NCBI RefSeq assembly: GCF_017115095.1 | Contig: NZ_JABXKI010000383.1 | Span: 1 to 33,839, forward strand | Reading direction: 5' to 3' | DNA from: Nostoc sp. NMS4 | GTDB taxonomy: Bacteria; Cyanobacteriota; Cyanobacteriia; Cyanobacteriales; Nostocaceae | Length of the DNA: 33,839 nt | Shown here: positions 1 to 16,592 of the stretch, piece after piece | Layout: every line of letters begins with the position of its first letter | How positions within the stretch are numbered: position 1 is the stretch's first letter | Position numbers and translations under genes: made by a program | Notes under the pieces: model-generated | What the model was told of the DNA's origin: nothing | The model's input: the letters and a program-made list of their open reading frames with translations, nothing else | Databases searched by the model: none

Positions 1-2
1 AC

Positions 3-1092: not shown

Positions 1093-1142
1093 AACTGGCG
1101 AATCTTGAACGTTAGAAATGCGATCGCACTGCCACTCATAAA

Positions 1143-1173
1143 TAAAAAAGAGACCGGTACGAACCACGTCTCT
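1143..1173 (-). terminator. Rho-independent terminator of the 1199-1501 gene
   Basis: On the minus strand AGAGAC and GTCTCT (1168-1173 and 1149-1154) form a stem around a GGT/ACC inner helix. They are followed by a run of six T and then ATTT. It lies about 25 bases after the stop of the minus-strand gene that ends at 1199. Confidence 0.6.
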
Positions 1174-1198
1174 AGGCGATGGGAAAATTTTTTAAGGG

Positions 1199-1501
1199 TT
1201 ATACTACATCTGCAACCAGCAAGCCATTAACAGCTATGATGATTAACTGTGCTTGCAAAGGAGTATCAAAACAGGGTCTTTCATCTCTATTACAGGGCTG
1301 CGCTATCCATTTACCCTCCAGATTTTGATAAAAAGTACCTAACAATTGTGAACCGTTCCAAACTCGATAAAGTTCTCCAAAATCATCGTTTATGGAATCA
1401 ATTTCTATTTCTGGGGGTGCTGGGTCTGTTAGTTGGTCAACGTAGCCCTCAAACTCTGATTGAGCCAAGGCTTGGTTATCAAATTCTTCTTGTACAATCA
1501 T
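1199..1501 (-). CDS. Hypothetical acidic protein, 100 aa
   Basis: The frame starts with ATG at 1501 and encodes a strongly acidic N-terminal half (EFEGYVDQLTDPAPPEIEID) and a C-terminal half with LLGTFYQNLEGKWIAQP followed by a hydrophobic stretch. A plausible terminator follows the stop. No known domain is recognised. It resembles short cyanobacterial hypothetical proteins that carry a Tyr/Trp-rich beta motif. It is divergent from the XRE regulator at 1723 across a region full of inverted repeats, so the two may share control. The opposite-strand frame over the same region is judged a shadow because of its composition. Confidence 0.6.
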   Translation of the reverse strand: MIVQEEFDNQALAQSEFEGYVDQLTDPAPPEIEIDSINDDFGELYRVWNGSQLLGTFYQNLEGKWIAQPCNRDERPCFDTPLQAQLIIIAVNGLLVADVV

Positions 1502-1580
1502 CTAAGTAACCTCATCAATGGGGTTTTACAAAAGGCGATCGCAGTCTCTTCCCGGAGTGGCGATCGCTTTTGTTTTGTCT

Positions 1581-1691
1581 ATAAATTAATCTACGTGACG
1601 CGTAGTTATACGTCAAGCGTAGATTTATAAAACTTAGAATGTTATAAATCTACTTGTACTTTTAGATACTGACAAGTAGAGAAATCTACAT
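1581..1691. promoter_or_regulatory. Inverted-repeat operator cluster upstream of the XRE regulator
   Basis: Several copies of a TATAAATCTAC-like word occur in both orientations. A large inverted repeat spans 1581-1630, with outer arms ATAAATTAATCTACG and CGTAGATTTATAA. CTACTTGT (1650-1657) faces ACAAGTAG (1672-1679), and GTAGA-gaaa-TCTAC lies at 1676-1689. The cluster sits between a divergent minus-strand gene and the XRE gene at 1723. XRE-family dimers typically bind such palindromes and regulate themselves. That this one binds here is inference. Confidence 0.5.
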
Positions 1692-1722
1692 CTAACAGCT
1701 ACTAAACTGGGGATGTAGTGAT

Positions 1723-1983
1723 ATGCCTATGGATAAAGTGATTCGCTGGAAATTAAATGAAGTGATGGCGCGAAAGCGAGTGAGGAACAAGGATTTAGCT
1801 GAGGCGTTAGGAATTACTGAAAATTCTGTATACAGGCTGCGTAAGGTTGACGAAATGCCACGATTAGCCCCAGAAAGGTTAAACGGCATTTGTAAGGCAT
1901 TGGATTGTCAACCTGGGGAGCTTTTGGAATATTTACCCAATGATGACGATGGCAAGGTAGTTTCTAGCGTTGAAGTGGCGTGA
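1723..1983 (+). CDS. XRE-family helix-turn-helix transcriptional regulator
   Basis: An 86-residue DNA-binding protein. The HTH covers about residues 8-65: RWKLNEVMARKRVRNKDLAE, then ALGITENSVYRLRK as the turn and recognition helix, then ICKALDCQPGELLEYLP, which is the usual last helix of the Cro/CI/XRE fold. A GGGGA sequence lies about ten bases before ATG 1723; ATG 1729 is an alternative start. The gene stands alone in front of the TPR-CHAT gene, about 230 bp away. It is preceded by an inverted-repeat cluster that could be its own operator. It may regulate the neighbouring defence-like genes, but this is not shown by the sequence. Confidence 0.85.
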   Translation: MPMDKVIRWKLNEVMARKRVRNKDLAEALGITENSVYRLRKVDEMPRLAPERLNGICKALDCQPGELLEYLPNDDDGKVVSSVEVA

Positions 1984-2027
1984 TTTTAGGGTGTTGGGAT
2001 TTGAGCGATCGCACTCATCAACAATTA

Positions 2028-2059
2028 GCGATGCCTACGGCGGGCTACGCCAACGCATC
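2028..2059. repeat. Interspersed palindromic repeat (GCGATGCCTACGGCGGGCTA type)
   Basis: A 32-bp short palindromic repeat in the gap before the TPR-CHAT gene. Related copies lie at 6201-6230 and, remarkably, inside cas12k at 15292-15321. Such repeats are scattered through filamentous cyanobacterial genomes. Confidence 0.7.
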
Positions 2060-2212
2060 CTGCTGTTAAGTGAAATTGCCACTGGGCAATAGGGGGATTA
2101 TCGCTCGTCCTCAAAAACGCAACATCAGTGATGAAATTCTCCACTTTTCTGGAATTTAGAGCGTTAATGTTGAATTATTCTCATGATCTAGTTGCGTTTC
2201 ACACCCTTACCC

Positions 2213-5200
2213 ATGAACGAACAGCGTCAGCAAGCTTATCTCAACCTTATTCGCAGCCTGTTAGATTCCCCTAGTGGTGAAGAATCAGAGATTTTAGCAG
2301 CAAACCAAGAGTTACTTGATGCTGGCTTTGTGCAGAAGGTAGAAGAAGTAGCACAGATGTTTTCCCAACACGGAGATGAGAAGACAGCGAATTGGTTGCA
2401 AAGTTTGGCAATGCAACTACGGGAAGCGTTGAATCTAGATAACAAAATAGATTTGCAATCTCTCAGTGAGGAGGAGAGACAAGCATATTTACAATTCTTG
2501 ATGGAGGTACTACAAGCAACCGCAAACAGTAACGGTGATTCCCAGGTAGTTTACCCCTTGCTGGCAAATAATATAGACAAACTTGACAAAGTGTTAGCAG
2601 AAATATTGCGCCGTTGGGGGACAAATAGACTTGGGGAAGCCCAAGCAGATGAAGCGAAATATTTAGCAGCAGTTATTGTCACATTCAGCAATCTAATTCA
2701 GCAATTCCCCTTGGGTAGCAAAGCCAGCAATATGGAAATTGCCATTACTGGCTATGAAGTCGCGTTGACAGTCTACACTAGAGAAGCTTTGCCTCAAGAT
2801 TGGGCAATGACGCAAACTAATCTCGCAAATGCCTACAGGGAGAGAATTAAAGGAGACAAGGCAGATAACATCGAAAATGCGATCGCTGCTTCTACTGCTG
2901 CTTTAACTGTCTACACTCCTGAAGCTTTGCGTTTTGAATGGGCAATGACGCAAAATAATCTCGCTCTTGCCTACTGGGAGAGAATTAAAGGAGACAAGGC
3001 AGATAACATCGAAAATGCGATCGCTGCTTATAATGCTGCTTTAATTGTCAGAACTCCTGAAGCTTTGCCTTTTGAATGGGCAACAATACAAAATAATCTC
3101 GCTCTTGCCTACAGGGAGAGAATTAAAGGAGACAGGGCAGATAACATCGAAAATGCGATCGCTGCTTCTACTGCTGCTTTAACTATCTACACCAGAGAAG
3201 CTTTGCCTCAACAATGGGCAACAATACAAAATAATCTCGCTCTTGCCTACAGGGAGAGAATTAAAGGAGACAGGGCAGATAACATCGAAAATGCGATCGC
3301 TGCTTCTACTGCTGCTTTAACTATCTACACCAGAGAAGCTTTGCCTCAACAATGGGCAACAATACAAAATAATCTCGCTCTTGCCTACAGGGAGAGAATT
3401 AAAGGAGACAGGGCAGATAACATCGAAAATGCGATTGCTGCTTCTACTGCTGCTTTAACTGTCTACACTCCTGAAGCTTTGCCTTTTGAATGGGCAATGA
3501 CGCAAAATAATCTCGCAAATGCTTACAGGGAGACAATTAAAGGAGACAAGGCAGAGAACATCGAAAATGCGATTGCTGCTTATAATGCTGCTTTAACTGT
3601 CTACACTCCTGAAGCTTTGCCTTTTGAATGGGCACAGACGCAAAATAATCTCGCTGCTGCCTATAGCAATAGAATTAAAGGAGACAAGGCAGAGAACATC
3701 GAAAATGCGATTGCTGCCTCTACTGCTGCTTTAACTGTCTACACTTCTGAAGCTTTGCCTTTTGAATGGGCAATGACGCAAAATAATCTCGCTGCTGCCT
3801 ACAGCGATGGAATTAAAGGAGACAGGGCAGATAACATCGAACAGGCGATCGCTGCTTATACTGCTGCTTTAAGTGTCTACACCAGGGAAGCTTTGCCTCA
3901 ATATTGGGCAATGACGCAAAATAATCTTGCTATTGCCTACAGAGATAGAATTAAAGGAGACAGGGCAGATAACATTGAACAGGCGATCGCTGCTTATACT
4001 GCTGCTTTAAGTATCTACACCAGGGAAGCTTTGCCTCAAAACCATGCAGAATCTTTGTTTGGACTCGGAATTGCTTACCAAAACGCAAACAAGTTTGACT
4101 TAGCATACAATAATTTTGAGTCTGCCATTGCTGGTATAGAATCTTTACGAGAAGAAATAGTATCTGGAGAAGAAAGCAAACGCAAACAAGCGGAATACTT
4201 TAACAGCGTTTATAGCCGCATGGTAGAAGTTTGCAGGAAATTAAATAAGATTACCGAAGCAATTGAATATGTGGAACGTAGTAAAACCCGCAATTTAGTT
4301 GAACAAATCCTTGAACGTGACTCTAAAACCATCTTCCCTCTCGAAGTAGTAACTCAACTAGAAACATACAGGGATGAAATAGCCACAGGACAATATCAAA
4401 TCCAAAATGGCAAAGCTGAAAATCCCCAAGCCCTAGCACAACATCTGCAACAGTTGCGACAACAGCGTAATGAATTACAAAACCAATACTTAAGAGTTGG
4501 TTATGGTTTCAAATTTGGCTCCTTCCAAGGTTCTGTGGATGAGCATACAGCCATTATTGAGTGGTATATTCTGAACGACAAAATGCTGGCTTTTATTATC
4601 ACAAAAACAAGAGAGGTAACAGTTTGGCAATCTCAACCAGAAGACCGAGAAGCTTTGAGGAATTGGATAAATCAATATTTACAAAACTACTATAATCAAA
4701 AAGACCAATGGCTTAAGAGCTTAGGAGAATCACTCAAAGAATTAGCCTCAATTCTGCACATAGATGAAATATTAAACCAGATACCAAAGCACTGCAATCA
4801 ACTCATCCTAATTCCCCATCGGTTCCTGCATTTATTCCCCCTTCATGCACTCCCAGTCAATCACAATGCTGAAAATTCGCGTTGTCTTCTAGATTTATTT
4901 CCTAATGGTGTGAGTTATGCACCCAGTTGTCAACTACTGCAACAGGTACAACAGCGTAAACGTCCTGATTTTCAATCCTTGTTTGCGATTCAAAATCCCA
5001 CAGGTGATTTAAACTATACAGATTTAGAAGTACAAGTTATTCAAAGCTACTTTAATACTGCTAATGTCCTGAAAAAAACAGCAGCGACACTCACAGCAAT
5101 TAATAATTCTGACTTAAATACTTACCACTGCGCCCACTTTAGCTGTCACGGTTATTTTAACTTCACAAACACCGATAAATCAGCCCTAATTTTGGCAGAT

Positions 5201-5752
5201 GCACCCATCGCAGACACCCTAACAAAACCCGACTCCGAACGTTATCTGAATGTGCGAGCAGGGGAAACCCACGATTTAGACAAATGTCTTACCCTAGATA
5301 AAATCTTCAGTCTCAAATTAGAAAAATGTCGCCTCGTCACCCTTTCAGCCTGCGAAACTGGATTGATTGATTTTGACAATACCAGTGATGAATATATTGG
5401 TTTACCTAGCGGTTTTCTGTTAGCAGGAAGTAAAGCTGTAGTCAGTAGTCTGTGGAGTGTTGACGATTTATCTACAGCGTTTTTGATGATGAAATTTTAT
5501 GAAAACCTGCAAAAAATAAATAGTGTCTCCTTAGCACTTAATCAAGCACAACAGTGGTTGCGAAATTTAACTACAGAGGAATTTGAAGCACTATTAATTA
5601 AATATCAGCCACAAATAGAAGAAATTTTTGCTCAACTCCCAGAAGAAAAGCGTCCAGTTGCAAGAGCGATATTAAAAAGAACCTGCAAGCGTAAACCTCA
5701 CCCTTTTGCAGCAGCATTTTACTGGGCAGGATTTACAGCTACAGGGCTTTAG
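2213..5752 (+). CDS. TPR-repeat CHAT-domain protein (caspase-like peptidase)
   Basis: A 1179-residue protein. An in-frame TTG at 2192 would add seven residues, but the cyanobacterial family typically begins MNEQRQQAY, so ATG 2213 was chosen. The N-terminal region (about 1-200) is helical. It is followed by nine 46-residue TPR-like repeats (DNA 2822-4063) with the core IKGD(K/R)A(D/E)NIE, then a helical linker. The C-terminal CHAT domain has the expected His in FSCHG (H979) and Cys in TLSACETG (C1047), so the peptidase dyad looks intact. CHAT proteins of this layout are sensor-protease modules in defence and cell-death systems, including TPR-CHAT of type III-E CRISPR. The target here is unknown. 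The convergent small protein ending at 5749 is a candidate partner. Confidence 0.9.
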   Translation: MNEQRQQAYLNLIRSLLDSPSGEESEILAANQELLDAGFVQKVEEVAQMFSQHGDEKTANWLQSLAMQLREALNLDNKIDLQSLSEEERQAYLQFLMEVLQATANSNGDSQVVYPLLANNIDKLDKVLAEILRRWGTNRLGEAQADEAKYLAAVIVTFSNLIQQFPLGSKASNMEIAITGYEVALTVYTREALPQDWAMTQTNLANAYRERIKGDKADNIENAIAASTAALTVYTPEALRFEWAMTQNNLALAYWERIKGDKADNIENAIAAYNAALIVRTPEALPFEWATIQNNLALAYRERIKGDRADNIENAIAASTAALTIYTREALPQQWATIQNNLALAYRERIKGDRADNIENAIAASTAALTIYTREALPQQWATIQNNLALAYRERIKGDRADNIENAIAASTAALTVYTPEALPFEWAMTQNNLANAYRETIKGDKAENIENAIAAYNAALTVYTPEALPFEWAQTQNNLAAAYSNRIKGDKAENIENAIAASTAALTVYTSEALPFEWAMTQNNLAAAYSDGIKGDRADNIEQAIAAYTAALSVYTREALPQYWAMTQNNLAIAYRDRIKGDRADNIEQAIAAYTAALSIYTREALPQNHAESLFGLGIAYQNANKFDLAYNNFESAIAGIESLREEIVSGEESKRKQAEYFNSVYSRMVEVCRKLNKITEAIEYVERSKTRNLVEQILERDSKTIFPLEVVTQLETYRDEIATGQYQIQNGKAENPQALAQHLQQLRQQRNELQNQYLRVGYGFKFGSFQGSVDEHTAIIEWYILNDKMLAFIITKTREVTVWQSQPEDREALRNWINQYLQNYYNQKDQWLKSLGESLKELASILHIDEILNQIPKHCNQLILIPHRFLHLFPLHALPVNHNAENSRCLLDLFPNGVSYAPSCQLLQQVQQRKRPDFQSLFAIQNPTGDLNYTDLEVQVIQSYFNTANVLKKTAATLTAINNSDLNTYHCAHFSCHGYFNFTNTDKSALILADAPIADTLTKPDSERYLNVRAGETHDLDKCLTLDKIFSLKLEKCRLVTLSACETGLIDFDNTSDEYIGLPSGFLLAGSKAVVSSLWSVDDLSTAFLMMKFYENLQKINSVSLALNQAQQWLRNLTTEEFEALLIKYQPQIEEIFAQLPEEKRPVARAILKRTCKRKPHPFAAAFYWAGFTATGL
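2822..4063 (+). repeat. Nine tandem 138-bp repeats inside the TPR-CHAT gene
   Basis: The unit is 138 bp (46 codons) and starts at the Leu-Ala before each AYRERIKGD-type motif. Units 3, 4 and the first part of 5 are almost identical at the DNA level, while the outer units diverge. This points to recent unequal recombination or slippage, which would change the number of sensor repeats without breaking the frame. Confidence 0.9.
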
Positions 5753-6129
5753 GGTTCAGGTTTGGCAGCTTCACAAAACTGCTTTACGCCGATTTTGGCA
5801 ACATAAATTACTACTGGAGTTGCCAGAGCTATGGGAATATTACCACTTGCTGCTAAGGTGGCGATCGCAGCTGTCAATACTCCCGTCATCAAGTCGTCAA
5901 ATTCTTCCTGACAGATGATTTTGCTGAGTTTTTGTGCTAATTTCTCTAAATAATTTGAATCTCCCCTTAAGCTGACTTCTGCTTCGGTTGTCTCAACAGC
6001 AATTAACTGTGCTGCTGCTTCCAGATTTCCCTGACACTCTTCTATAGCATCCAAAGCTGCTAAAGCCTCTGAATTATCTGCCAACTGGCTGCGAAACTGA
6101 CTAAGTTCCTCTGGTGTAACGGTAATCAT
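5749..6129 (-). CDS. Small protein with C-terminal hydrophobic segment, convergent with TPR-CHAT
   Basis: A 126-residue frame with ATG at 6129. Its stop overlaps the stop of the TPR-CHAT gene by four bases on the opposite strand. Residues 1-45 are helical and contain ALDAIEECQGNLEAAAQLI, which resembles a UBA-like or coiled helical module. Residues 46-82 are charged. Residues 83-115 are hydrophobic and Ala-rich (VLTAAIATLAAS and IALATPVVIYVAKIGV) and could insert in a membrane as a helical hairpin. No family was recognised. A short helical domain joined to a membrane-active segment beside a CHAT protease fits a protease-released effector or a target, but this is inference from layout only. 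Confidence 0.6.
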   Translation of the reverse strand: MITVTPEELSQFRSQLADNSEALAALDAIEECQGNLEAAAQLIAVETTEAEVSLRGDSNYLEKLAQKLSKIICQEEFDDLMTGVLTAAIATLAASGNIPIALATPVVIYVAKIGVKQFCEAAKPEP

Positions 6130-6200
6130 TTAAGAGCTTTAACCAGTAAATATACAAAATACTCAGCAATTATACATTTAATGCCGAATCTAGAGTTATG

Positions 6201-6230
6201 GCGATGTCTACGGCGGGCTAAACCTACGCA
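6201..6230. repeat. Interspersed palindromic repeat, second copy
   Basis: GCGATGTCTACGGCGGGCTA followed by AACCTACGCA; a diverged copy of the repeat at 2028-2059. It lies in the 222-bp gap between the small hydrophobic protein gene and hsdR, which otherwise shows only a HIP1 site. Confidence 0.6.
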
Positions 6231-6351
6231 CTCACAGCATCCATCTCCCACAGCACGGAGATGGCGAGAAGCGATCGCTATTTTTAGCTATGGTTATGTA
6301 GCTTTGAGTTAATCGGCTAACTGGGGTGCTTAATTTTAGCTATCTACCTAA

Positions 6352-8706
6352 TTAAGCTGCTCTGTCCTGAGAATATAAATACTGCTGAAACCCGATAAAT
6401 ACTTGACTGATAGTTGCAACGCTTCCTAGTTCTTCAACAGCATCACGAACAGTATGATATTTCAACTCTAACAGTTGAGGTAATTTAGTGCGATCGAGTT
6501 CCCCCACCCCAGCTTTGATGTATTGTTCGAGTATAAAGTCGAGAAATTCTTGCTGTTTGCCGATATAGCGCGAGAAAATTAATGATTTGTGAGCGAGGAC
6601 ACGCTCTCGGCGGCTTATAGGTGCTGAGGCATAGGCGATATAACCCAGTACATCATATAAATCGCTTTTCTCAGCATCAATCAGGCGACTAATTTCTGTG
6701 AGTTGTTCTTCTCCGTAGCCCTTCTCTGCCAGTCCTTCTAATAAAGCTCTACGGGTGTCAGGGCGACTCCAAATTGCTCTTAATTCGTCTTCATCTGTGA
6801 ATAGTTCGGGAATTTCACCAAAGAGACGTTGCACAAATTCTGCGGCGCTCATAGGTTTACCGTCTGGACTCCAGAAGCTGGTGGATATTCGGTGCTGGAG
6901 AGTTCGTTCTTTACCATCGGCGAGTTTGATTTTGATGGTTTTGGGGTTGGGAACTTCTGCAATTTCGTTTCTATTTTTGCCTCTATTTATACCACCATCT
7001 GTTATAGAGTCGTTGTATGCGCCTGATTTCTCTCCCCCTCTGGCAATTTTGACGAGAACAGGTTCCTGGGGTTCGCCATCCCATTCAGGATCTTTGAAGT
7101 GTTCATAAGCTTTGACGAAATCATAAATGGTGAAGTAGTCTTTCCCATCAAATAGGCGAGTACCGCGACCAATAATTTGCTTAAATTCAATGATCCAGTT
7201 GATGGAGCGCATCAGCACAATGTTACGAACATTCCGGGCATCAACCCCAGTGGAAAGCTTTTGGGAGGTGGTGAGAATGGTGGGGATAGTTTTCTCGTTG
7301 TCTTGAAAGTTGCTGAGGTGCTGTTCTCCCAGTTTCCCATCATCGGCGGTGACGCGGACACAGTAATTAGGGTCACTGCTAATCTTCATTTGGTTGATTA
7401 AATCCCGCACAGCTAGAGCGTGGAGTTGGTTGGCGCAAAACACCAGAGTTTTTTGATTCTGGTCGATTTCTTCCATGAACAACTGCACCCGGTAGCGTTC
7501 GCGATCGCTAATTTCAATGATGCGGTTGAAGTCAGCTTCAGTGTAGGTTCTGGCTTCGTCTACTGCACCTTCAATCAGTTCATCTTCAGTGCTGTAAATA
7601 TATTCATCTAGGTTAGTTTCGATTTGCCTGACTTTAAAGGGAGTAAGAAACCCGTCGTTGATGCCGTCTTTGAGCGCGTAGGTATAGACTGGCTCGCCGA
7701 AGTAGGCGTAGGTGTCTGCGTTATATTTTCGTTTAGGAGTGGCGGTGAGTCCCAGTTGTACTGCTGGGGAGAAGTATTCTAAAATGCCCCGCCAGGTGCT
7801 TTCGTCACTGGCTCCGCCTCGGTGACATTCATCAATGATAATAAAGTCAAAGAAGTCGGGGGGATAGTCGCTGAATTTGGGCGTAGGATTGCCAGTGTCG
7901 TCCCGTCCAGTCATAAAAGTCTGGAAAATCGTAAAAAAGATACTGCCATTTTTGGGGACTCGACCTCGTTTTTTGATAGCTTCGGGGTCGATGCGGACGA
8001 GGGCATCATCAGGGAAAGCAGAGAAAGAATTATAGGCTTGGTTGGCTAAGATATTGCGATCGCTTAAAAACAGAATTCGCGGACGACGGGTGGGTTGTCG
8101 GCTGAGATTCCAACGGCTTTGAAAGAGTTTCCAGGCGAGTTGGAAGGCGATGAAAGTTTTACCTGTGCCTGTTGCCATCGTTAACAAAATCCGGTCTTGT
8201 CCTTGGCAGATTGCTTCTAGGACGTGCTTAATGGCATTGTGTTGATAATAACGGGCTTCCCATGTGCCGCTTTTGTCTTCAAAGGGGATGGCAGCAAAGC
8301 GATCGCGCCACTCATTATCTTCGCTAAAGGTGGCTTCCCAAAGTTGCTCCGGGGTGGGATATTGGTTGATGTAGCCTTCTGCCCCTGTGTGCATATCTAC
8401 TTGGTAGATTCCGATGCCATTTGTGGAGTAGGCGAATCGAGTCTGCAATTTTTCGGCGTATTTTTTGGCTTGCCCTAAACCTTCGGTATCTCGTAAGTCG
8501 CGTTTTTTCGCTTCGATGACGGCGAGTTTTTCACCACGATAAACCAGGACATAATCGGCGATGTCTGATTGAGCGCGTTTACCATTGCCAACTAAGCGAC
8601 CAGGGGCAATAACTTCGCGGCGGATGCGACTACCTTCAATAACTCCCCAGCCTGCGGTTTTTAGTGCGGGGTCAATTAGTTCGGCACGGGTTTCGGCTTC
8701 GTTCAT
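6352..8706 (-). CDS. hsdR: Type I restriction endonuclease, R subunit (EcoEI-like)
   Basis: A 784-residue motor and nuclease subunit of a type I R-M complex. It translocates DNA with ATP and cuts unmodified DNA when bound to HsdM and HsdS. The N-terminal nuclease domain shows D51 and VIEAKK (E65, K67), the D-ExK pattern of HSDR_N. The helicase has motif I ATGTGKT (178-184), motif II DECH (292-295), motif III LTATPKR and a motif VI-like region QIIGRGTRLF. The C-terminal part from about residue 620 matches the EcoEI R C-terminal region. The length is normal and the frame complete. It is the last gene of a minus-strand hsdM-hsdS-albA-hsdR cluster, separated from the previous gene by 232 bp of tandem repeats, so it may need its own promoter. 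Confidence 0.95.
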   Translation of the reverse strand: MNEAETRAELIDPALKTAGWGVIEGSRIRREVIAPGRLVGNGKRAQSDIADYVLVYRGEKLAVIEAKKRDLRDTEGLGQAKKYAEKLQTRFAYSTNGIGIYQVDMHTGAEGYINQYPTPEQLWEATFSEDNEWRDRFAAIPFEDKSGTWEARYYQHNAIKHVLEAICQGQDRILLTMATGTGKTFIAFQLAWKLFQSRWNLSRQPTRRPRILFLSDRNILANQAYNSFSAFPDDALVRIDPEAIKKRGRVPKNGSIFFTIFQTFMTGRDDTGNPTPKFSDYPPDFFDFIIIDECHRGGASDESTWRGILEYFSPAVQLGLTATPKRKYNADTYAYFGEPVYTYALKDGINDGFLTPFKVRQIETNLDEYIYSTEDELIEGAVDEARTYTEADFNRIIEISDRERYRVQLFMEEIDQNQKTLVFCANQLHALAVRDLINQMKISSDPNYCVRVTADDGKLGEQHLSNFQDNEKTIPTILTTSQKLSTGVDARNVRNIVLMRSINWIIEFKQIIGRGTRLFDGKDYFTIYDFVKAYEHFKDPEWDGEPQEPVLVKIARGGEKSGAYNDSITDGGINRGKNRNEIAEVPNPKTIKIKLADGKERTLQHRISTSFWSPDGKPMSAAEFVQRLFGEIPELFTDEDELRAIWSRPDTRRALLEGLAEKGYGEEQLTEISRLIDAEKSDLYDVLGYIAYASAPISRRERVLAHKSLIFSRYIGKQQEFLDFILEQYIKAGVGELDRTKLPQLLELKYHTVRDAVEELGSVATISQVFIGFQQYLYSQDRAA

Positions 8707-8720
8707 CTTTGTTGGGGCTG

Positions 8721-8938
8721 CGGTTTGCGTTAAAGCACTTTTTTCGAGATTTTATAAGGGTTTCAGACTTTTGGGGTTGACTATATCGGTTTGCGTTAAA
8801 GCACTTTTTTCGAGATTTTATAGGGGTTTCAGACTTTTGGGGTTGACTATATCGGTTTGCGTTAAAGCACTTTTTTCGAGATTTTATAGGGGTTTCAGAC
8901 TTTTGGGGTTGACTATATCGGTTTGCGTTAAAGCACTT
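8721..8938. repeat. 66-bp tandem repeat, three full copies and a partial fourth
   Basis: Units begin at 8721, 8787, 8853 and 8919, exactly 66 bp apart, each with CGGTTTGCGTTAAAGCACTT. The full copies are nearly identical, with one A/G difference seen. The fourth stops after 20 bases, immediately at the stop codon of the AlbA-type gene. The array fills the gap between that gene and hsdR. Because 66 is a multiple of three, it creates a spurious open frame on the plus strand. Confidence 0.95.
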
Positions 8939-10357
8939 TCACGCCCAAAAAGGAAGGTAGGAAGCATAGCGAGTAGAGGTCGATTCAGATTCATCCATTT
9001 TGATAAATCCATCTTCTTTGGTAGCCTTGATTACTAGCGAAATGGTTGCCGCTCCTGACTCGCTCAAACCAAAACGCTCTCTCAGTGTCTGGTTAGACAT
9101 TCGCCGATTATTAATATATAGTAAGCAACAATGTTGGTAACAAGCCCGAATGCGATCTGATTTTCTCATGTTGGCGAAGTTTTGATGAGCGAATAATATT
9201 GCTGTGGTACGAATCTCACCCACCCGAAAATCTGGTGCTGGTAGTTGAAACACTTCTGCTAAATTTACAACTTTATCAATGCCACTGCCTTTTTCTTCAC
9301 ATATACCGAAAAGTCGCATTAGGTTGGCAAGTTGTTCGTTACGGGAGCGATTTTCATCAATAAATCGCTCTACCTTAATGGGTGGGATGCCGGGATTAGA
9401 TATTTCAATGCGATCGCTATACATCTCGATCATCACTGAAGTACCTGTTGTTAGAAAATCTTGATGCACCAAAGCATTAGCAATAAGTTCTCTTAAAGCC
9501 TGTTCTGGAAACATCTTTACTTCTTCCCGCACAACTTCCTCGATAAAGCGATTTTGAGGTGCTGCTGAGTAGACGAAATCCACTAATCCGTTAAAGCCAA
9601 CAGCATATCCTCGGATGCCTGTCGTGTCATTACGAGTTTTTAGCTTATTGATACCTTCGTAGATTACGACACGGGGAGCTTTACGAGCCAATGCAGGGGA
9701 AAAGGCATCCAGTTTTTTTGCCAACAGGATCGCAGCTAGGTTTGTGATTGTCCAACCATGTGCTGTTGGTTTAATTAACTGTTGGCTCTGCAATCTTTCT
9801 AGGACAGCATCGCGGGTAGTTGGATAGGGAATTTTTAGCAGTTCAAAGTATGATTGAGTATCTAAAAGGGCAATTACGTCGTCAGGACTGGCATCAGAGC
9901 GAGCAGCTTGGCAAAACCAATCTTGTTGGTCTTCTGCAAAAATTTTCTTGAGTACATCTGGTGTCATCGGACGTAAATCTTCACCAGATCGCATCAAGTA
10001 TGCACCATCAAATGTATATGCTTGTCCTACAGGACGAGGTGGTATTTCAAAGACTAATACTCGACCATTGGGATGGGCTAATTCTGTTACGTCTACGCGG
10101 AATCTAAGTTTTTCTACAATACGGGATTTAATTTAATTCAGGGAAGTCTGTGATGGAAAAGCTTGGGAACCTACAACTTGACGTGGTGGCTTATTGGTTA
10201 CGCCGAAAACTAGATATCCACCTCCTTCATTGGCTAATGCTATACAATACTTGAGTAAGTCAACTTTATTAAATTGCTGCTTGGCTTCTTTAAATTCAAG
10301 GTTTTCAGTTTCAGCAGGTGCATTCAGCCATTTTTCAAGGGTTTCTAGGGTAATCAT
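8939..10357 (-). pseudogene. AlbA_2/Schlafen-type, RecG-C-like ATP-binding protein, interrupted by an in-frame stop
   Basis: The first 74 codons (ATG 10357) encode an AlbA_2/Schlafen-like start: ENLEFKEAKQQFNKVDLLKY and ANEGGGYLVFGV. A TAA at 10135-10133 then interrupts. The same frame continues open without a shift (KSRIVEKLRFRVDV and so on) through LRELIANALVHQDF, the N-box-like motif of the HATPase_c_4 RecG C-terminal-type domain, and a final winged-helix region, to TGA 8939. The whole would be 472 codons plus stop. Such genes are regular companions in type I R-M operons. The ATG overlaps the stop of hsdS (ATGA), which indicates translational coupling. A single nonsense change has probably inactivated it. 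A restart product from TTG 9997 would lack the AlbA part. Confidence 0.85.
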
Positions 10358-11595
10358 GCTGCAATTTCCTCCTTAGCAGCTTTCGGGGTGTCTGCGGTGA
10401 GTTCGCCTGTGAATGCTTTTTGCAGGATGGATTGTTTGAGTTCTTTGAGTGCAGCGATTTTTTGATGGTAGATGGATTCGAGACGACCAATTTTTTCGGA
10501 TAAGGCATCGAGTTCAGTGACAATTATTTCCTGTTGTTCTTTAGGTATTTTAGGAACAGAGAAACGCCGGAGTCCACTCAGAGAAACTGTTTTCTGTGCA
10601 GTACCCGTAGCACATTCATCAGCTTGAGTCAAAAGATAACGTGATAAAAGTATGTAATACAAACATTTTAAATTTGTTTCAGCGTTTGGTCTTATCAATC
10701 CAATATGTCGCTGAAAGCAAAAATCAATATCATGATCAACTATAACTGGAATTCCATACGAACCAGTAACTGTATAGAGCAAGTCACCTTTACGCGGTTT
10801 TCTATTGCTTTTTAGCTTTTCAAAATATTCAGGTGGAACCTTAAATGTATTAGAGAAATCAACTTTCCGATTTTGTTTATCTATGTTCGATATTGTAATA
10901 AATGGAATGCCAGATTGTGATTTAGGCGGAGGTTGATGATCTCCATCAGTAATATCCGTCGTTATCTCAGATAAACTGACCCATTCCCACCTGTTATTTT
11001 TCTGGGTGAAGATGGCGTTTAGATAGCTTTCAAATAGTTCGCGGGAGTTGGAGAGGTTCTTTTCGGCGTTGGCGATCGCTCTATCAATCCCCTCAAACGC
11101 CTCATCCAAAATCGCCACAATCCGCTTTTGTTCTGGAAGTGGTGGTTTTGGTATTTTATGTCTCTTGAGTTTTTCTATTGGAAGAGCTTGATAAGCTGAT
11201 CCGTGAGAAATACCATTTAGTTGATCAATAAAAGCCATTAATGAATATTTAAGGAAATAAGAATCTATATCTCTGAAATCCTTAAGCCATAATACATTTC
11301 CATCTTTAAAGTAAAAATTTGTGTTATCTACTACATATATTTCGCCTATTGTACCAATTGCAGTAATTAGTAAATCACCTATTTCAGGAGTGCCAAATTT
11401 TCTCTTTATCTCATCAAACCTATTTTGAGATATATATAACTCTGTCGATATTGTTCTTCCATTTGCTAATTCTTTAATTTCTTTAGTTCTATAGAAGGGA
11501 ACTCCTGTATCAACATATTCACTTTTAAATATACGCTTGCTAGAAGTAATTTTTCCTAGTTTTTCTAGGGCAACCATTTCCCATATTATTTTCAT
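10354..11595 (-). CDS. hsdS: Type I restriction-modification specificity subunit
   Basis: A 413-residue DNA-recognition subunit with two target-recognition domains, about residues 1-150 and 200-350. Each is followed by a conserved helical spacer: PLPEQKRIVAILDEAFEGID at about 155-200, and IPKEQQEIIVTELDALSEKI near the C terminus with SILQKAFTGEL. This two-TRD layout implies a bipartite recognition sequence, which cannot be read from the gene. The ATG overlaps the hsdM stop by four bases and its own stop overlaps the next gene by four bases (ATGA), so the three genes are translationally coupled. The start MKIIWEMVAL has no strong Shine-Dalgarno of its own. Confidence 0.95.
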   Translation of the reverse strand: MKIIWEMVALEKLGKITSSKRIFKSEYVDTGVPFYRTKEIKELANGRTISTELYISQNRFDEIKRKFGTPEIGDLLITAIGTIGEIYVVDNTNFYFKDGNVLWLKDFRDIDSYFLKYSLMAFIDQLNGISHGSAYQALPIEKLKRHKIPKPPLPEQKRIVAILDEAFEGIDRAIANAEKNLSNSRELFESYLNAIFTQKNNRWEWVSLSEITTDITDGDHQPPPKSQSGIPFITISNIDKQNRKVDFSNTFKVPPEYFEKLKSNRKPRKGDLLYTVTGSYGIPVIVDHDIDFCFQRHIGLIRPNAETNLKCLYYILLSRYLLTQADECATGTAQKTVSLSGLRRFSVPKIPKEQQEIIVTELDALSEKIGRLESIYHQKIAALKELKQSILQKAFTGELTADTPKAAKEEIAA

Positions 11596-13106
11596 AATAT
11601 TTCCCCAATACCCGCCAAAATTTCTGCACTCTCCGCATCCAAAGCCCCAATCTCATCCAAAATGTCCTGCGGTTCTCGTAACAGCGATTCCTCAGCTTTA
11701 TTTGGATTCTTCACCGATAAATCAAACGATTCCCGATCCAAATCAGCAATATCCACCAGCCAAGACTTTTCTGTTTCCGCAAACCTAGCCTGTAACTCCA
11801 CAAACTCGCGTAAATCCTCATCATTCAGGGAATTGGTTTTACCCATATTCCGCCCCGGATCGAGTTGGTAATACCAAATTTTCTGAGTAGCCATTCCCTG
11901 ATTTAAAGGTTTTCCCTGAGAAAATAAAGGCGTTCCCTGAACGGAGTCAAAGGGTTTTCCTTTCTCAAAAAACAGCACCACCGTTTTCACCCCCGCCCCG
12001 ATAAAAGTCCCACTCGGACAATCCAAAATGGTGTGCAGATTGCAACTACTCAAAAGCTCTTGACGCAACGCCCGCGAAGCATTATCCGAATTTGACAGGA
12101 ATGTATTTTTGATTACCACCGCCGCCCTACCGCCCATCTTCAGGATTTTGATGAAATGCTGCAAAAACAGAAACGCCGTTTCCCCAGTTTTAATCGGGAA
12201 ATTCTGCTGTACTTCCTTGCGTTCCTTCCCCCCAAATGGCGGATTAGCCAAGATTATATCAAAGCGATTCTTGTCCTGAATATCAGTGAGATTTTCCGTC
12301 AGCGTGTTGGTGTGGATAATATTCGGCGCATCAATGCCATGCAAAATCATATTCATGATCGCAATCACATACGCCAAACTTTTCTTTTCTTTACCCGTAA
12401 ACGTATGTTTTTGCAGTATCTCAAGCTCTTTTGTTGTCAGCTTACCCCGACGTAAATAGTCGTAACTCTCACACAAAAACCCCGCCGAACCGCAAGCACC
12501 ATCATAAATGCGATCGCCAATCTTCGGCTTCACCACCTGAATCATTGCCCTAATCAACGGACGCGGCGTGTAATATTCCCCACCATTACGCCCTGCATTA
12601 CCCATATTTTTGATTTTGGCTTCATAGAGATGCGATAGCTCGTGTTTCTCCTGTTGCGATCGAAACCGTAGCTCATCAATATATTCCAGCGCATCCCGCA
12701 AGCTGTAGCCGCTTTGAAACCTATTTTTAATCTCGCTAAAAATTTCCCCAATCTTGTATTCGATTGTATCTGGACTAGTAGCCCGTTGCTTGAAACTCTG
12801 TAAATATGGGAATAACTTGCGGTTGACATAATCAATCAAATCATCGCCAATCAGCGCATTATCATGATCCAATGTACCATCCGCTTTTTTCGGTGCTGCC
12901 CAAGATGACCAGCGATGCGCCTCATCAATAATAAATTCGTATGGCTTGCCAGCCAGTTCCGCCTCTAGCGCCCTTTCCTGCTCCAAATCATCCAAATACT
13001 TCAGAAACAGCAGCCAAGAGGTTTGCTCCGTGTAATCTAACTCTGTAGTACAACCCGCCTCTTTCCAGAGAACATCATCAATATTTTTAAAAGTTTGCTC
13101 GAACAT
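11592..13106 (-). CDS. hsdM: Type I restriction-modification DNA methyltransferase (N6-adenine)
   Basis: A 504-residue methyltransferase subunit. It has the N-terminal HsdM helical domain (about 1-130), the SAM-binding motif DGACGSAGFL (202-211), catalytic NPPF (288-291), and GGEYYTPRPLIRAM before motif I, all normal for the family. It methylates adenine in the HsdS-defined site and is required for both protection and cutting. Residues about 384-404 (KPFDSVQGTPLFSQGKPLNQ) look like an in-frame insertion encoded by a repeat with three TTCCCTGA words, between VVLFFEKG and TQKIWYYQLDPGRN. The catalytic motifs are untouched, so activity is likely preserved. It is the first gene of the minus-strand operon, with a promoter probably in the 264-bp gap to the right. 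Confidence 0.95.
   Translation of the reverse strand: MFEQTFKNIDDVLWKEAGCTTELDYTEQTSWLLFLKYLDDLEQERALEAELAGKPYEFIIDEAHRWSSWAAPKKADGTLDHDNALIGDDLIDYVNRKLFPYLQSFKQRATSPDTIEYKIGEIFSEIKNRFQSGYSLRDALEYIDELRFRSQQEKHELSHLYEAKIKNMGNAGRNGGEYYTPRPLIRAMIQVVKPKIGDRIYDGACGSAGFLCESYDYLRRGKLTTKELEILQKHTFTGKEKKSLAYVIAIMNMILHGIDAPNIIHTNTLTENLTDIQDKNRFDIILANPPFGGKERKEVQQNFPIKTGETAFLFLQHFIKILKMGGRAAVVIKNTFLSNSDNASRALRQELLSSCNLHTILDCPSGTFIGAGVKTVVLFFEKGKPFDSVQGTPLFSQGKPLNQGMATQKIWYYQLDPGRNMGKTNSLNDEDLREFVELQARFAETEKSWLVDIADLDRESFDLSVKNPNKAEESLLREPQDILDEIGALDAESAEILAGIGEIL
11895..11965. repeat. Repeat-derived in-frame insertion in hsdM
   Basis: On the plus strand TTCCCTGA occurs three times (near 11895, 11912 and 11933), followed by ACGGAGTCAAAGGG. 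The last part resembles a palindromic repeat widespread in cyanobacteria (CCCT..GACTCCG..CAGGG). It encodes about 21 residues in HsdM. Confidence 0.6.
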
Positions 13107-13370: not shown

Positions 13371-13544
13371 TTAACTCCCCTGTGACTCTCCACCAGGAGG
13401 GGAATCTTTTTTTTTCAACCAATCTCTAATCGCCTCCTCCAAAGCCGCAGTCTGGGTCAATTCCAGACGCGCACAGGCAATTTCAAAAGCGATTTTTAAG
13501 TCTTTAGGGAGTCTCCCCCGAACTTCTCTAGTTTCTTCTGCCAT
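13371..13544 (-). CDS. Arc-like ribbon-helix-helix regulator next to cas12k
   Basis: A 57-residue frame from ATG 13544 to TAA 13373-13371. EVRGRLPKDLKIAFEIACAR is the strand and first helix, and LELTQTAALEEAIRDWLKKK the second helix, of an Arc/CopG fold. A Pro/Gly-rich tail follows. RHH proteins bind DNA as dimers through the N-terminal strand. Type V-K systems commonly carry a small repressor gene divergent from cas12k, either the MerR-like CvkR or an Arc-type protein, which controls cas12k. Position, orientation and the tandem repeat in the shared intergenic region make this the likely local repressor. DNA binding itself is inferred. Confidence 0.8.
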   Translation of the reverse strand: MAEETREVRGRLPKDLKIAFEIACARLELTQTAALEEAIRDWLKKKDSPPGGESQGS

Positions 13545-13707: not shown

Positions 13708-15630
13708 ATGAGCATTATTACAATTCAATGTCGCTTGGTTGCGGAAGAAGACACTCTTCGTCAACTTTGGGAACTTATGGCTGAAAAAAATACACCACTT
13801 ATCAATGAATTGTTGCTACAGGTAGGAAAGCACCCAGGATTTGAAACCTGGCTAGAAGAAGGCAAAATACCTACTGAATTACTCAAAACACTTGTTAACT
13901 CCCTCAAAACTCAAGAGCGTTTTGCTGGTCAATCTGGACGCTTTTACACCTCAGCGATCGCTTTAGTGGATTATGTATATAAATCCTGGTTTGCGTTACA
14001 AAAACGCAGAAAGTACCAAATAGAAGGGAAAGAGCGTTGGCTGAAAATGCTCAAAAGCGATCTAGAACTCGAACAAGAAAGTCAATGTAGCTTAAACGTA
14101 ATTCGTACTAAAGCCACCGAAATTATTACCAAATTTACCCCCCAGTCCGAGCAGAATAGCAACCAGAAAAAGGGCAAAAAGACTAAAAAATCTACAAAGT
14201 CCAAAAAATCTTCACTTTTCCAAATTCTCTTAAACACTTACGGAGAAACAGAAGACCCTCTTACTCGTTGCGCTTTCGCATATCTGCTCAAAAATAACTG
14301 TAAAATCAGTGAACTCGACGAAGACCCAGAAGAATTTACTAGAAATAGACGCAAAAAGGAAATAGAAATTGAGCGATTAAAAGACCAACTTCAAAGCCGC
14401 ATACCGAAAGGTAGAGATTTGACAGGAGAAGAGTGGTTAAAAACTTTAGAAATTGCTACAGCTAATGTAGCTCAAAATGAAAAAGAGGCAAAAGCTTGGC
14501 AAGCAGCACTTTTAAGAAAAACTGCTGATGTCCCCTTTCCTGTGGCTTACGAATCTAAAGAAGATATGACATGGTTAAAAAATGACAAAGGTCGTCTCTT
14601 TGTTCGGTTCAATGGCTTGGGAAAACTGACCTTTGAGATTTACTGTGATAAGCGTCATGTGCAGTACTTTCAACGCTTTTTAGACGATCAAGAAATTAAA
14701 CGCAATAGTAAAAATCAATATTCAAGCAGTTTGTTCACTCTGCGTTCAGGGAGGCTTGCTTGGTTCCCAGGTGAGGAAAAAGGTAAAGTCTGGAAAGGAA
14801 ATCAGCTAAATCTCTACTGCTCTTTAGATACTCGGATGTGGACTACTGAAGGAACTCAACAAGTAATTGAGGAGAAAGTCACAAAAATTACCAAAACTTT
14901 AACTATAGCAAAACAGAAAGATGACCTCAACGATAAACAACAAGCTTTTATCACTCGTCAGCAATCAACGCTAGATCGAATTAATAACCCTTTCCCTCGT
15001 CCCAGCAAGCCTAATTATCAAGGTCAACCCTCAATCCTAGTTGGCGTTAGTTTTGGTCTAGAAAAGCCAGTAACAGTAGCGGTGGTAGATGTTGTTAAAA
15101 ATGAAGTCCTAGCTTATCGCAGTGTCAAACAACTACTTGGTGAAAACTACAATCTTCTCAATCGTCAGCGACAACAACAGCAACGCCTATCTCACGAACG
15201 GCACAAAGCTCAGAAACAGAATGCGCCAACCTCCTTTGGTGAATCAGAGTTAGGGCAATATGTAGATAGATTATTAGCAGATGCAATTATTGCGATGCCT
15301 TCGGCGAGCTTCGCTAACGCCAAAACCTATCAAGCAGACAGCATAGTTATGCCAAAACTCCGCGATATGCGTGAGCAAATCAGTAGCGAAATCCAATCCA
15401 GAGCAGAAAAGAAATGTCCTGGTTACAAGGAAGCTCAACAAAAATATGCCAAAGAATATCGTATAAGCATTCATCGCTGGAGTTACGGTCGATTAATTGA
15501 GAGTATTAAATCCCAAGCTGCAAAAGTCGGAATTTCTATTGAAATTGGTACACAGCCAATCAAAGGTACTCCACAAGAAAAAGCGGGAGATTTAGCCGTC
15601 TTTGCTTACCAAGAACGTCAAGCCGCTTAA
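13708..15630 (+). CDS. cas12k: Cas12k, type V-K CRISPR effector
   Basis: A 640-residue RNA-guided DNA-binding protein that finds the target for Tn7-like transposition and does not cut. It is recognisable throughout by similarity to known Cas12k: TPLINELL near the start, RFAGQSGRFYTSAIALVDYV, a Lys-rich linker at about 152-169, and IPKGRDLTGEEWLKTL. The RuvC-like half begins at ILVGVSFGLEKP (443-454), where the catalytic Asp of active Cas12 is missing. LGENYNLLNRQR, LSHERHKAQK, SIVMPKL and RWSYGRLI follow. Residues about 530-538 (MPSASFANA) look like a repeat-encoded insertion. A GAGG Shine-Dalgarno lies five bases before ATG 13708. The gene is followed by its tracrRNA and array. Expression is probably controlled by the divergent RHH gene. 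Confidence 0.97.
   Translation: MSIITIQCRLVAEEDTLRQLWELMAEKNTPLINELLLQVGKHPGFETWLEEGKIPTELLKTLVNSLKTQERFAGQSGRFYTSAIALVDYVYKSWFALQKRRKYQIEGKERWLKMLKSDLELEQESQCSLNVIRTKATEIITKFTPQSEQNSNQKKGKKTKKSTKSKKSSLFQILLNTYGETEDPLTRCAFAYLLKNNCKISELDEDPEEFTRNRRKKEIEIERLKDQLQSRIPKGRDLTGEEWLKTLEIATANVAQNEKEAKAWQAALLRKTADVPFPVAYESKEDMTWLKNDKGRLFVRFNGLGKLTFEIYCDKRHVQYFQRFLDDQEIKRNSKNQYSSSLFTLRSGRLAWFPGEEKGKVWKGNQLNLYCSLDTRMWTTEGTQQVIEEKVTKITKTLTIAKQKDDLNDKQQAFITRQQSTLDRINNPFPRPSKPNYQGQPSILVGVSFGLEKPVTVAVVDVVKNEVLAYRSVKQLLGENYNLLNRQRQQQQRLSHERHKAQKQNAPTSFGESELGQYVDRLLADAIIAMPSASFANAKTYQADSIVMPKLRDMREQISSEIQSRAEKKCPGYKEAQQKYAKEYRISIHRWSYGRLIESIKSQAAKVGISIEIGTQPIKGTPQEKAGDLAVFAYQERQAA
15292..15321. repeat. Palindromic repeat inserted inside cas12k
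   Basis: GCGATGCCTTCGGCGAGCTT followed by CGCTAACGCC is a copy of the interspersed repeat at 2028-2059, in frame within cas12k. It encodes AMPSASFANA between the residues that would normally join directly before KTYQADSIVMPKL. Confidence 0.8.
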
Positions 15631-15671
15631 ATTTAATTCACTAATCCGAACCTAGAAAATATAATATTTTT

Positions 15672-15972: not shown

Positions 15973-16121
15973 AAAACTTTAAAACCCTTATCCAGTCTTG
16001 ACTTAAGAAACTAGTGTGTCAATGCATTTAGTTTTTTAATTTGCAATTCGAGACTTTTTAAGCAGACCTGCCAAATTATGTGTATGGAAAGCTTTTATAG
16101 CAAGGGTTCTAGACGGGTAGA

Positions 16122-16231
16122 GTTTCAACAACCATCCCAGCGAGGGGTGGGTTGAAAGTAATCTTCTTCTCTGCTAGCAAAAAACTCAATAATGGTTTCA
16201 ACAACCACCCCGGCTAGGGGTAGATCGAAAA
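16122..16231 (+). CRISPR. Minimal V-K CRISPR array: two 37-bp repeats, one 36-bp spacer
   Basis: Repeat 1 (16122-16158) begins GTTTCAACAACCATCCCAGC and ends GGGGTGGGTTGAAAG. The spacer is 16159-16194. Repeat 2 (16195-16231) begins GTTTCAACAACCACCCCGGC but has a degenerate 3' end, TAGATCGAAAA in place of TGGGTTGAAAG, as expected of a terminal repeat. The repeat is the V-K type and is transcribed in the same direction as cas12k and the tracrRNA. No match for the spacer was noticed in the window. The array is very short, so most targeting by this element may rely on the separate homing guide. Confidence 0.93.
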
Positions 16232-16250
16232 AATAAGCAATAGAAAATAT

Positions 16251-16292
16251 GTACTCGTACTAACCAGATTTGAAAATGGTTAGTACGAGTAC
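16251..16292. repeat. Perfect 16-bp inverted repeat between array and homing guide
   Basis: GTACTCGTACTAACCA (16251-16266) and TGGTTAGTACGAGTAC (16277-16292) are exact reverse complements around a 10-base loop. No T tract follows, so it is not a classic terminator. It sits just before the truncated repeat-spacer unit. Confidence 0.9.
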
Positions 16293-16303
16293 AACTAAGT
16301 TAT

Positions 16304-16335
16304 TAGGAGGGTTGAAAGGAGTGCTGCGATCGAAC
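16304..16335 (+). ncRNA. Delocalized homing crRNA: truncated repeat plus 17-nt spacer against tRNA-Ala
   Basis: A truncated repeat ending GGAGGGTTGAAAG (16306-16318) is followed by GAGTGCTGCGATCGAAC (16319-16335). The adjacent tRNA-Ala gene contains GAGTGCTGCGATCGCAC on its coding strand, a 16 of 17 match with one mismatch at position 15, directly after GTA. V-K PAMs are GTN. V-K CASTs are known to use such truncated repeat-spacer units with short spacers to home to tRNA genes, so the assignment is strong. The truncated repeat pairs with the tracrRNA anti-repeat over a perfect eight bases. A promoter of its own was not seen. Confidence 0.93.
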
Positions 16336-16394
16336 AAATGTTAAGGAAAAATAATTTCCTTGTGGTAAATTTTACAGTTAATGACGAAAGAAGA

Positions 16395-16515
16395 CGACGT
16401 TAATTTGCGAAAACCTAATATACTAAAATTAGTAACACAAAGTTACGAAATCGACCTTAATTGGCAAAAAGCGACATTAATTTGCGAATTCCGACATATA
16501 ATTTGCGAATGTACA
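16395..16515. repeat. CAST right end: four TnsB-type repeats and TGTACA terminus
   Basis: Four related sites are CGACGTTAATTTGCGAA (16395-16411), CGACCTTAATTGGCAAA (16452-16468), CGACATTAATTTGCGAA (16472-16488) and CGACATATAATTTGCGAA (16492-16509). The last runs into TGTACA (16510-16515). V-K element ends terminate in TGTACA and carry arrays of such TnsB-binding sites. CATAT (16516-16520) is the likely 5-bp target duplication. The open frame at 16381-16581 runs through this end into the tRNA and is not a gene. Confidence 0.9.
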
Positions 16516-16520
16516 CATAT

Positions 16521-16592
16521 GGAGAATAACGGATTTGAACCGATGGCCTCTGCGGTGCGATCGCAGCACTCTACCAACTGAGCTAATTCCCC
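16521..16592 (-). tRNA. tRNA-Ala (anticodon CGC), CAST attachment site
   Basis: On the minus strand the sequence folds as acceptor GGGGAAT/ATTCTCC, with the Ala identity pair G3-U70. The D arm is GCTC/GAGT. The anticodon stem CTGCG/CGCAG holds the loop ATCGCAC (anticodon CGC). The T arm ATCGG-TTCAAAT-CCGTT has one T-T mismatch. The HIP1 octamer GCGATCGC lies in the anticodon arm. The discriminator A would be at 16520, inside the presumed target duplication, and CCA is not encoded. The homing protospacer is 16555-16571 with its PAM at 16572-16574, 56 bp from the transposon terminus. Confidence 0.9.

What the first reader, a model, noticed from the sequence alone, without database searches (positions are those of the whole stretch)
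16304..16592. Homing guide, protospacer, PAM and insertion point all visible at one tRNA-Ala site
Seen: the truncated repeat is followed by GAGTGCTGCGATCGAAC. The neighbouring tRNA-Ala(CGC) contains GAGTGCTGCGATCGCAC behind GTA on the same sense, and the transposon terminus lies 56 bp from the PAM, downstream of the protospacer. Known: V-K CASTs use delocalized short-spacer crRNAs, GTN PAMs and a fixed insertion distance of roughly 50-65 bp. Together this explains the present position of the element, including why the tRNA stays intact. The CRISPR-side end is the one facing the tRNA, which is worth comparing with the orientation reported for other V-K elements.
Basis: partly seen in the sequence, partly recalled or inferred. 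Interest (0 to 1): 0.85.

Follow-up and report, generated by a model that had tools for sequence, protein, structure and literature searches.

The report
tRNA-homing guide of a CRISPR transposon
A cyanobacterial jumping element carries a short RNA guide that aims it at a transfer-RNA gene and sits exactly where that guide predicts; this is a known kind of element, but comparison with relatives suggests that such elements may change target by swapping a small guide cassette.

Summary
A type V-K CRISPR-associated transposon (Cas12k 13708-15630) lies beside tRNA-Ala(CGC). A 12-nt truncated repeat (16307-16318) precedes a 17-nt guide (16319-16335) matching the tRNA gene 16 of 17 behind a GTA PAM; the terminus (16515) is 56 bp from the PAM. 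This is the published V-K homing architecture, and the CRISPR-side end facing the tRNA is the published standard: a new member of a known kind.

Added here: (1) The other end and tnsB lie on another contig, whose outer flank matches the DNA beside this tRNA in a relative lacking the element. Close copies of tnsC and tniQ were not found in the assembly and an IS stands in their place, so this copy is probably stranded. (2) The single guide mismatch (position 15, an anticodon base) recurs in 18 of 19 comparable Ala guides, with differing bases, but in 0 of 16 guides of a second V-K group at the same tRNA. (3) The nearest relative of the inner left end shares the tRNA target in 51 of 96 elements, against 16 of 90 for the stretch upstream, which suggests that targets are switched by exchange of a guide cassette.

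The parts
13708..15630 (+). cas12k (640 aa)
   Evidence: NCBIfam V_Cas12k NF038191, 950.5 bits, cut-off 150
13371..13544 (-). 57-aa ribbon-helix-helix protein upstream of cas12k in reverse orientation, place of the Arc-type CAST regulators
   Evidence: ORF; PF21432 56B_RHH 58.1 bits, cut-off 27.2; place as described in PMC9938897
15640..16110 (+). tracrRNA region (limits inferred); 8-nt complement of R* at 15914-15921
   Evidence: AACCCTCC at 15914 pairs with GGAGGGTT of R*; position between cas12k and array as in PMC9938897; no Rfam match here at gathering threshold
16122..16158 (+). CRISPR repeat 1
   Evidence: direct repeat; Rfam CRISPR-DR15 52.3 bits, listed on the - strand
16195..16231 (+). 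CRISPR repeat 2 (diverged)
   Evidence: 83% to repeat 1; Rfam CRISPR-DR15 38.5 bits
16250..16293 (.). 17-bp perfect inverted repeat between array and R*, function unknown
   Evidence: imperfect in L025, L029, L038, not formed in L141
16307..16318 (+). truncated repeat R* (12 nt)
16319..16335 (+). 17-nt homing guide, mismatch to target at position 15
16395..16515 (.). left end with repeated TTAATTTGCGAA-like sites, terminus TGTACA at 16510-16515
   Evidence: repeats D1 and D3; same terminal 17 nt at the right end on C387
16516..16520 (.). CATAT, possible target-site duplication (CATA repeated at the right end)
16520..16592 (-). tRNA-Ala(CGC), the attachment gene
16555..16571 (-). protospacer in the tRNA gene
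16572..16574 (-). PAM GTA
688..13106 (.). cargo: TPR-CHAT protein 2192-5752, type I restriction-modification genes 6352-8706, 10354-11595 and 11592-13106, and small ORFs
   Evidence: largely shared with the sister element in G028
1..455 (+). 3' part of an IS transposase that replaces tnsC and tniQ in this copy (likely join to contig C387)

Best explanation
This is the left end of a type V-K CAST. Cas12k with the tracrRNA and a short crRNA made from the truncated repeat and its 17-nt guide binds the tRNA-Ala(CGC) gene next to a GTA PAM; TniQ, TnsC and TnsB then insert the element 56 bp from the PAM, just beyond the tRNA 3' end, so the tRNA gene stays whole. Shown by sequence: the anatomy, the match, the spacing, the mate end, the same site without this element in a relative, and the recurrence of the arrangement in relatives. 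Inferred: that this guide directed this insertion, and that crRNA and tracrRNA are made. In this copy an IS stands where tnsC and tniQ should be, so it is probably unable to move by itself now.
For: Guide, PAM and spacing. Cas12k at 950 bits. Mate terminus with tnsB on C387. Outer flank of C387 orthologous to the DNA beside tRNA-Ala in G001. 128 non-redundant guide/target pairs in fetched loci, most at tRNA genes, with the same design; PAM-to-terminus distance 53-67 bp in 21 of the 23 pairs where the terminus motif was recognised, the other two 76 and 273. Loss of tnsC and tniQ: sister element G028:C450 has both, this copy lacks the stretch, and the best matches in the genome are 32% and 28% (TnsC) and 54% and 56% (TniQ), on C22 and C162. 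Published architecture: PMC9938897 and PMC11406308, passages.
Against: Only four of five duplicated bases are visible. The join of C387 to the window is not unique: contig C290 shares the same 55-mer. The guide has one mismatch. No expression or transposition data.
Confidence: 0.9

Rival explanations
1. The guide mismatch at position 15 is selected. A perfect copy of this part of the tRNA would let the guide fold on itself (GUGC with GCAC, or GCG with CGC); a change at this PAM-distal base opens the guide at little cost in target binding.
For: Mismatch at 15 in 18 of 19 clade-1 Ala(CGC) rows with A, T or G, while position 4 follows the host base in 19 of 19; 8 of 92 other clade-1 rows mismatch at 15. 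By the cas12k route alone 9 of 10. Perfect guide -3.3 kcal/mol, actual guide unfolded. Targets with a structured perfect guide have only mismatched guides in 7 of 9 cases against 17 of 46, one-sided Fisher p 0.029.
Against: Clade-2 guides at the same tRNA keep the matched base in 16 of 16. The rank test over all clade-1 pairs is not significant (p 0.09), the cut-off of -1.5 gives p 0.068, and a perfectly matched Cys guide is as structured (-3.7). L207 is perfectly matched. Rows are related by descent. Avoidance of the octamer GCGATCGC would fit equally well.
Confidence: 0.3
2. The recurrent mismatch is neutral inheritance: one ancestral guide carried it, and a PAM-distal base is free to drift.
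For: Mismatches are common in general (33 of 92 other clade-1 rows). Inner left ends of several Ala elements are related.
Against: The base varies (A 11, T 6, G 1, C 1 of 19) yet is almost never the matching C, and positions 16 and 17 stay matched in the same 19 (the pattern search favoured a matched position 17, not 16). Ala guides are scattered over the Cas12k tree (45 of 128 rows, many weak nodes).
Confidence: 0.5
3. The guide/tRNA match is chance, favoured by a common cyanobacterial octamer (GCGATCGC, recalled as HIP1).
For: The target contains GCGATCGC.
Against: 0.03 matches expected in the window; same design, PAM and spacing at many different tRNA genes in relatives.
Confidence: 0.01
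4. The copy is complete and the missing tnsC and tniQ are an assembly gap: the IS on C387 joins another contig.
For: C290 shares the 55-mer with the window start; several IS copies exist in the genome.
Against: No close tnsC or tniQ anywhere in an assembly rated 98.73% complete; the window resumes homology to the sister at its position 3532, after tniQ.
Confidence: 0.12

Closest known systems
Type V-K CAST with a tRNA-homing truncated repeat-spacer (systems surveyed in PMC9938897; review PMC11406308; Hsieh and Peters 2021 and Saito et al. 2021 known to me from reference lists and recall only)
   Same: Cas12k, array, R*, 17-nt guide, GTN PAM, left end beside a tRNA gene directed toward it, spacing within 46-82 nt, small DNA-binding regulator beside cas12k
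   Different: this copy lacks tnsC and tniQ; its guide has a PAM-distal mismatch that recurs in relatives; its inner left end differs wholly from that of a sister with the same main cargo at another tRNA
   Same: 95% identity from 11577 to 16230, related cargo, same terminal repeats
   Different: complete tnsB-tnsC-tniQ; guide to tRNA-Val(CAC); unrelated stretch between the last repeat and the terminal 58 bp
Second V-K group at the same tRNA-Ala (R* with TTTGAAAG or CTTGAAAG; L086, L103, L100)
   Same: 17-nt guide to the same protospacer and PAM
   Different: Cas12k 41-43% identical; position 15 matched in 16 of 16, position 4 mismatched in 8 of 16; different terminal repeats
Type I-D and I-B2 CASTs that home to tRNA genes (PMC10293859, passages; PMC11406308)
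   Same: Tn7-like elements that insert near tRNA genes
   Different: they home with a TnsD protein, not with a guide RNA

Membership tests
Type V-K CAST | Cas12k effector | tested here: met
   950.5 bits, cut-off 150
Type V-K CAST | CRISPR array with tracrRNA after cas12k | tested here: met
   two repeats; the tracrRNA is inferred from position and an 8-nt complement to R*, its transcription was not tested
Type V-K CAST | truncated repeat with 17-nt guide matching a protospacer outside the left end, GTN PAM | tested here: met
   16 of 17, PAM GTA
Type V-K CAST | left end 46-82 nt from the PAM | tested here: met
   56; range from PMC9938897
Type V-K CAST | two ends with related terminal repeats | tested here: met
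   identical terminal 17 nt on C63 and C387
Type V-K CAST | tnsB, tnsC and tniQ in this order next to the right end | tested here: not met
   tnsB present, tail replaced; no close tnsC or tniQ found. The sister has all three. Read as decay of this copy, not as another kind
Type V-K CAST | 5-bp target-site duplication (recalled) | tested here: inconclusive
   CATA shared, CATAT against ACATA
Type V-K CAST | inactivated RuvC site in Cas12k | not tested
   not examined
Type V-K CAST | RNA-guided transposition activity | not testable with these tools
   needs an assay

The most novel reading that the evidence does not exclude
V-K CASTs change attachment site by exchanging a left-end homing cassette of some 200-300 bp (R*, guide and inner left end) as a block, between the last CRISPR repeat and the terminal repeats, rather than by mutating the guide in place. 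Once in place the guide is tuned: its early positions follow the host tRNA, while a PAM-distal base is kept mismatched in some lineages, perhaps to keep a tRNA-derived guide unfolded.
Probability: 0.5. Interest if true: 0.65.

Novelty: new member of a known kind. Interest (0 to 1): 0.45.

Why it matters
The locus is a clean natural example of RNA-guided homing. [quoted passage not shown] Cassette exchange would explain this and can be tested directly. The recurrent mismatch suggests a simple rule to test for 17-nt guides taken from tRNA genes.

Tried and rejected
L222 carries the same guide sequence but no matching target in the fetched 4 kb. That homology between different-target elements stops at a CRISPR repeat is not diagnostic of cassette exchange: same-target pairs stop there too. 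A first inner-left-end comparison (15 of 93 against 40 of 89) could have reached into the host tRNA and was redone with a cut 45 nt short of it. The rank test of folding against mismatch was not significant (p 0.09). The sister's own ends show no 5-bp duplication, so lack of a clean duplication says little. The array spacer 16159-16194 has no match in the plasmid collection at the sensitivity used; phages were not searched. The Cas12k tree holds 45 of 128 rows and many weak nodes and was used only to see that Ala guides are scattered. Saito et al. 2021 is not held; Hsieh and Peters 2021 is a bioRxiv preprint seen only in a reference list, so either may already report cassette exchange or the mismatch.

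Full report
WHAT IS THERE. The window is the whole contig C63 of a 7.58-Mb, 440-contig genome. Its relatives appear to be Nostoc: the closest Cas12k among the 27 loci are mostly from records of that name. cas12k lies at 13708-15630, followed by the tracrRNA region, two CRISPR repeats, a 17-bp inverted repeat, the truncated repeat R* (16307-16318), the 17-nt guide (16319-16335), the repeated left end ending at 16515, and tRNA-Ala(CGC) on the other strand. The guide equals the tRNA gene at 16555-16571 except at position 15, with GTA as PAM. With up to 3 mismatches only these two places match in the window; 0.03 are expected. R* finds an 8-nt complement, AACCCTCC, at 15914-15921; for the ends of the two full repeats no exact complement of 6 nt or more was found there.

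THE OTHER END. The window does not contain the right end. The terminal 17 nt occur exactly once more in the genome, on contig C387, next to tnsB. C387 and the window share a 55-bp exact overlap inside an IS transposase whose frame runs on across the join; contig C290 carries the same 55-mer, so the join is likely, not certain. A second line of evidence: the DNA outside the right end matches the DNA directly beside tRNA-Ala in G001 (86% over 740 bp), where no such terminus stands. Outside the right end stands ACATA, preceded by what look like the terminal repeats of another Tn7-like family; outside the left end stands CATAT. Of 29 relatives whose tRNA-Ala flank I read, I judged by eye that 21 have a Tn7-like end abutting the gene, of two or three families (6, 13 and 2); this is a visual count.

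A STRANDED COPY. The sister G028:C450 (19,291 bp, related cargo) has open frames for TnsB, TnsC and TniQ in order at its right end; I assigned TnsC and TniQ by position and by their matches to other elements. Its stretch 2021-3531, with the tnsB tail, tnsC and tniQ, has no counterpart here; C387 stops matching at 2020 and the window resumes at 3532, with the IS between. The best matches in the genome are 32% and 28% identical (TnsC) and 54% and 56% (TniQ), on contigs C22 and C162, which carry other elements; one further weak TniQ match lies on C233.

AGAINST THE LITERATURE. Passages of PMC9938897, which surveys 118 systems, give the same anatomy, including the left end next to a tRNA gene directed toward the transposon, the array beside that end, and PAM-to-end distances of 46-82 nt. 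Passages of the review PMC11406308 say that most V-K att sites are tRNA genes recognised by truncated, separately placed crRNAs. So neither the kind of site nor the orientation is new.

COMPARISON SET. Cas12k passes the family cut-off in 100 of 388 genomes of the order and 87 of 217 of the family. I fetched 120 stretches downstream of cas12k, a part of those listed; 84 of the 120 gave a guide/target pair, as did 16 of the 27 loci. With loci of the Ala pattern search (36 places, 30 fetched as loci) and others already held, this made 128 pairs, non-redundant by sequence. Where the terminus motif was recognised (23 of 128), the PAM-to-end distance is 53-67 in 21, and 76 and 273 in the other two.

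THE MISMATCH. By the letter before TTGAAAG in R*, I call G or A clade 1 and T or C clade 2; in the three clade-2 loci with Cas12k in hand it is 41-43% identical to ours (L086, L103, L100). Clade-1 Ala(CGC) rows: 18 of 19 mismatch at 15, 3 of these also at 14, none elsewhere; position 4 equals the host base in 19 of 19. Clade-2 rows: 0 of 16 mismatch at 15, 8 of 16 at position 4, one each at 9 and 16. Other clade-1 rows: 8 of 92 at 15, 33 of 92 at any position. Nine of the 19 were reached only by the pattern search, which left positions 15 and 16 free but favoured a matched position 17; by the cas12k route alone it is 9 of 10. Position 15 is the third anticodon base (read off the tRNA sequence). 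ShCAST forms a 17-bp heteroduplex with S15 and TniQ at its PAM-distal end (PMC9876797, passages), so this base lies near the contact with the transposition proteins (inference). The perfect guide would make a 4-bp hairpin of -3.3 kcal/mol, the actual one folds into none. Across targets the link is modest: 7 of 9 structured targets have only mismatched guides, against 17 of 46 (one-sided p 0.029; p 0.068 at a laxer cut-off), the rank test gives p 0.09, and a structured Cys guide is perfectly matched; among 12 related mismatched pairs the gain exceeds random changes with a combined p of 0.004, which is overstated because they are not independent. Clade 2 contradicts a general rule. I leave this open.

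THE CASSETTE. Against the sister, identity is 95% from 11577 to 16230, nothing is detected to 16457, and the last 58 bp are 93% identical. The tracrRNA-array stretch of the window is 98-99% identical to elements aimed at Val (L054), Gly (L060) and Pro (L073) tRNAs. Its inner left end 16336-16457, guide left out, finds 14 elements: the best 7, itself included, are aimed at Ala; below them stand 4 Ala and 3 others, over 36-84 nt; L054 and L073 are not among them. Over the set, cutting 45 nt short of the tRNA, the best match of the inner left end shares the tRNA target in 51 of 96 elements, the best match of the upstream stretch in 16 of 90 (Fisher p 7e-7); without Ala, 35 of 77 against 10 of 76. 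Of clade-1 pairs at 85% or more over 60 nt or more, the 18 that reach 100 nt all share the target, and the 14 with different targets are all 83 nt or shorter. Against a simple reading: for pairs with upstream identity of at least 93%, an inner-left-end match is found in 6 of 25 different-target and only 3 of 8 same-target pairs, so the inner left end also changes fast by itself. Elements are related by descent, so the p-value is a guide only.

VERDICT. The finding is a well-formed member of a known kind, in a copy that has probably lost mobility. The cassette exchange and the recurrent mismatch are the parts that a specialist may not expect. I saw no mention of either in the passages read of four papers (PMC11406308, PMC9938897, PMC10293859, PMC9876797) or in the search listings; none of these papers was read whole, and two key 2021 papers were not available.

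Noticed in passing
L085 (G009:C309:23501-23885): Two V-K left-end termini stand 368 bp apart beside tRNA-Ala; the outer one abuts CRISPR-repeat sequence, as if a second element's end had joined onto the array.
   Followed up: partly
16250-16293: A 17-bp perfect inverted repeat lies between the array and R*. It is imperfect in L025, L029 and L038 and not formed in L141. No T-run follows; function unknown.
   Followed up: partly
window:16516-16592 and the same tRNA in relatives: tRNA-Ala(CGC) seems an insertion hot spot: by eye 21 of 29 relatives have a Tn7-like end abutting it, of two or three families.
   Followed up: partly
L015 (C162) and L021 (C22) of the same genome: Other CAST-like elements: C162 has a cas12k with one stop, tnsB, tnsC, tniQ and a perfect guide to tRNA-Arg(CCG); C22 has tnsB, tnsC and tniQ relatives.
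   Followed up: partly
L207 (G073:C50): The only clade-1 Ala guide with a perfect match is also the one with an odd PAM-to-end distance, 76 bp against 53-59 in the 11 others measured.
   Followed up: no
L222 (G363:C1, about 4006433): An R* with the perfect Ala guide but no matching target in the fetched 4 kb, in a genome that also has a mismatched Ala guide at another place.
   Followed up: no
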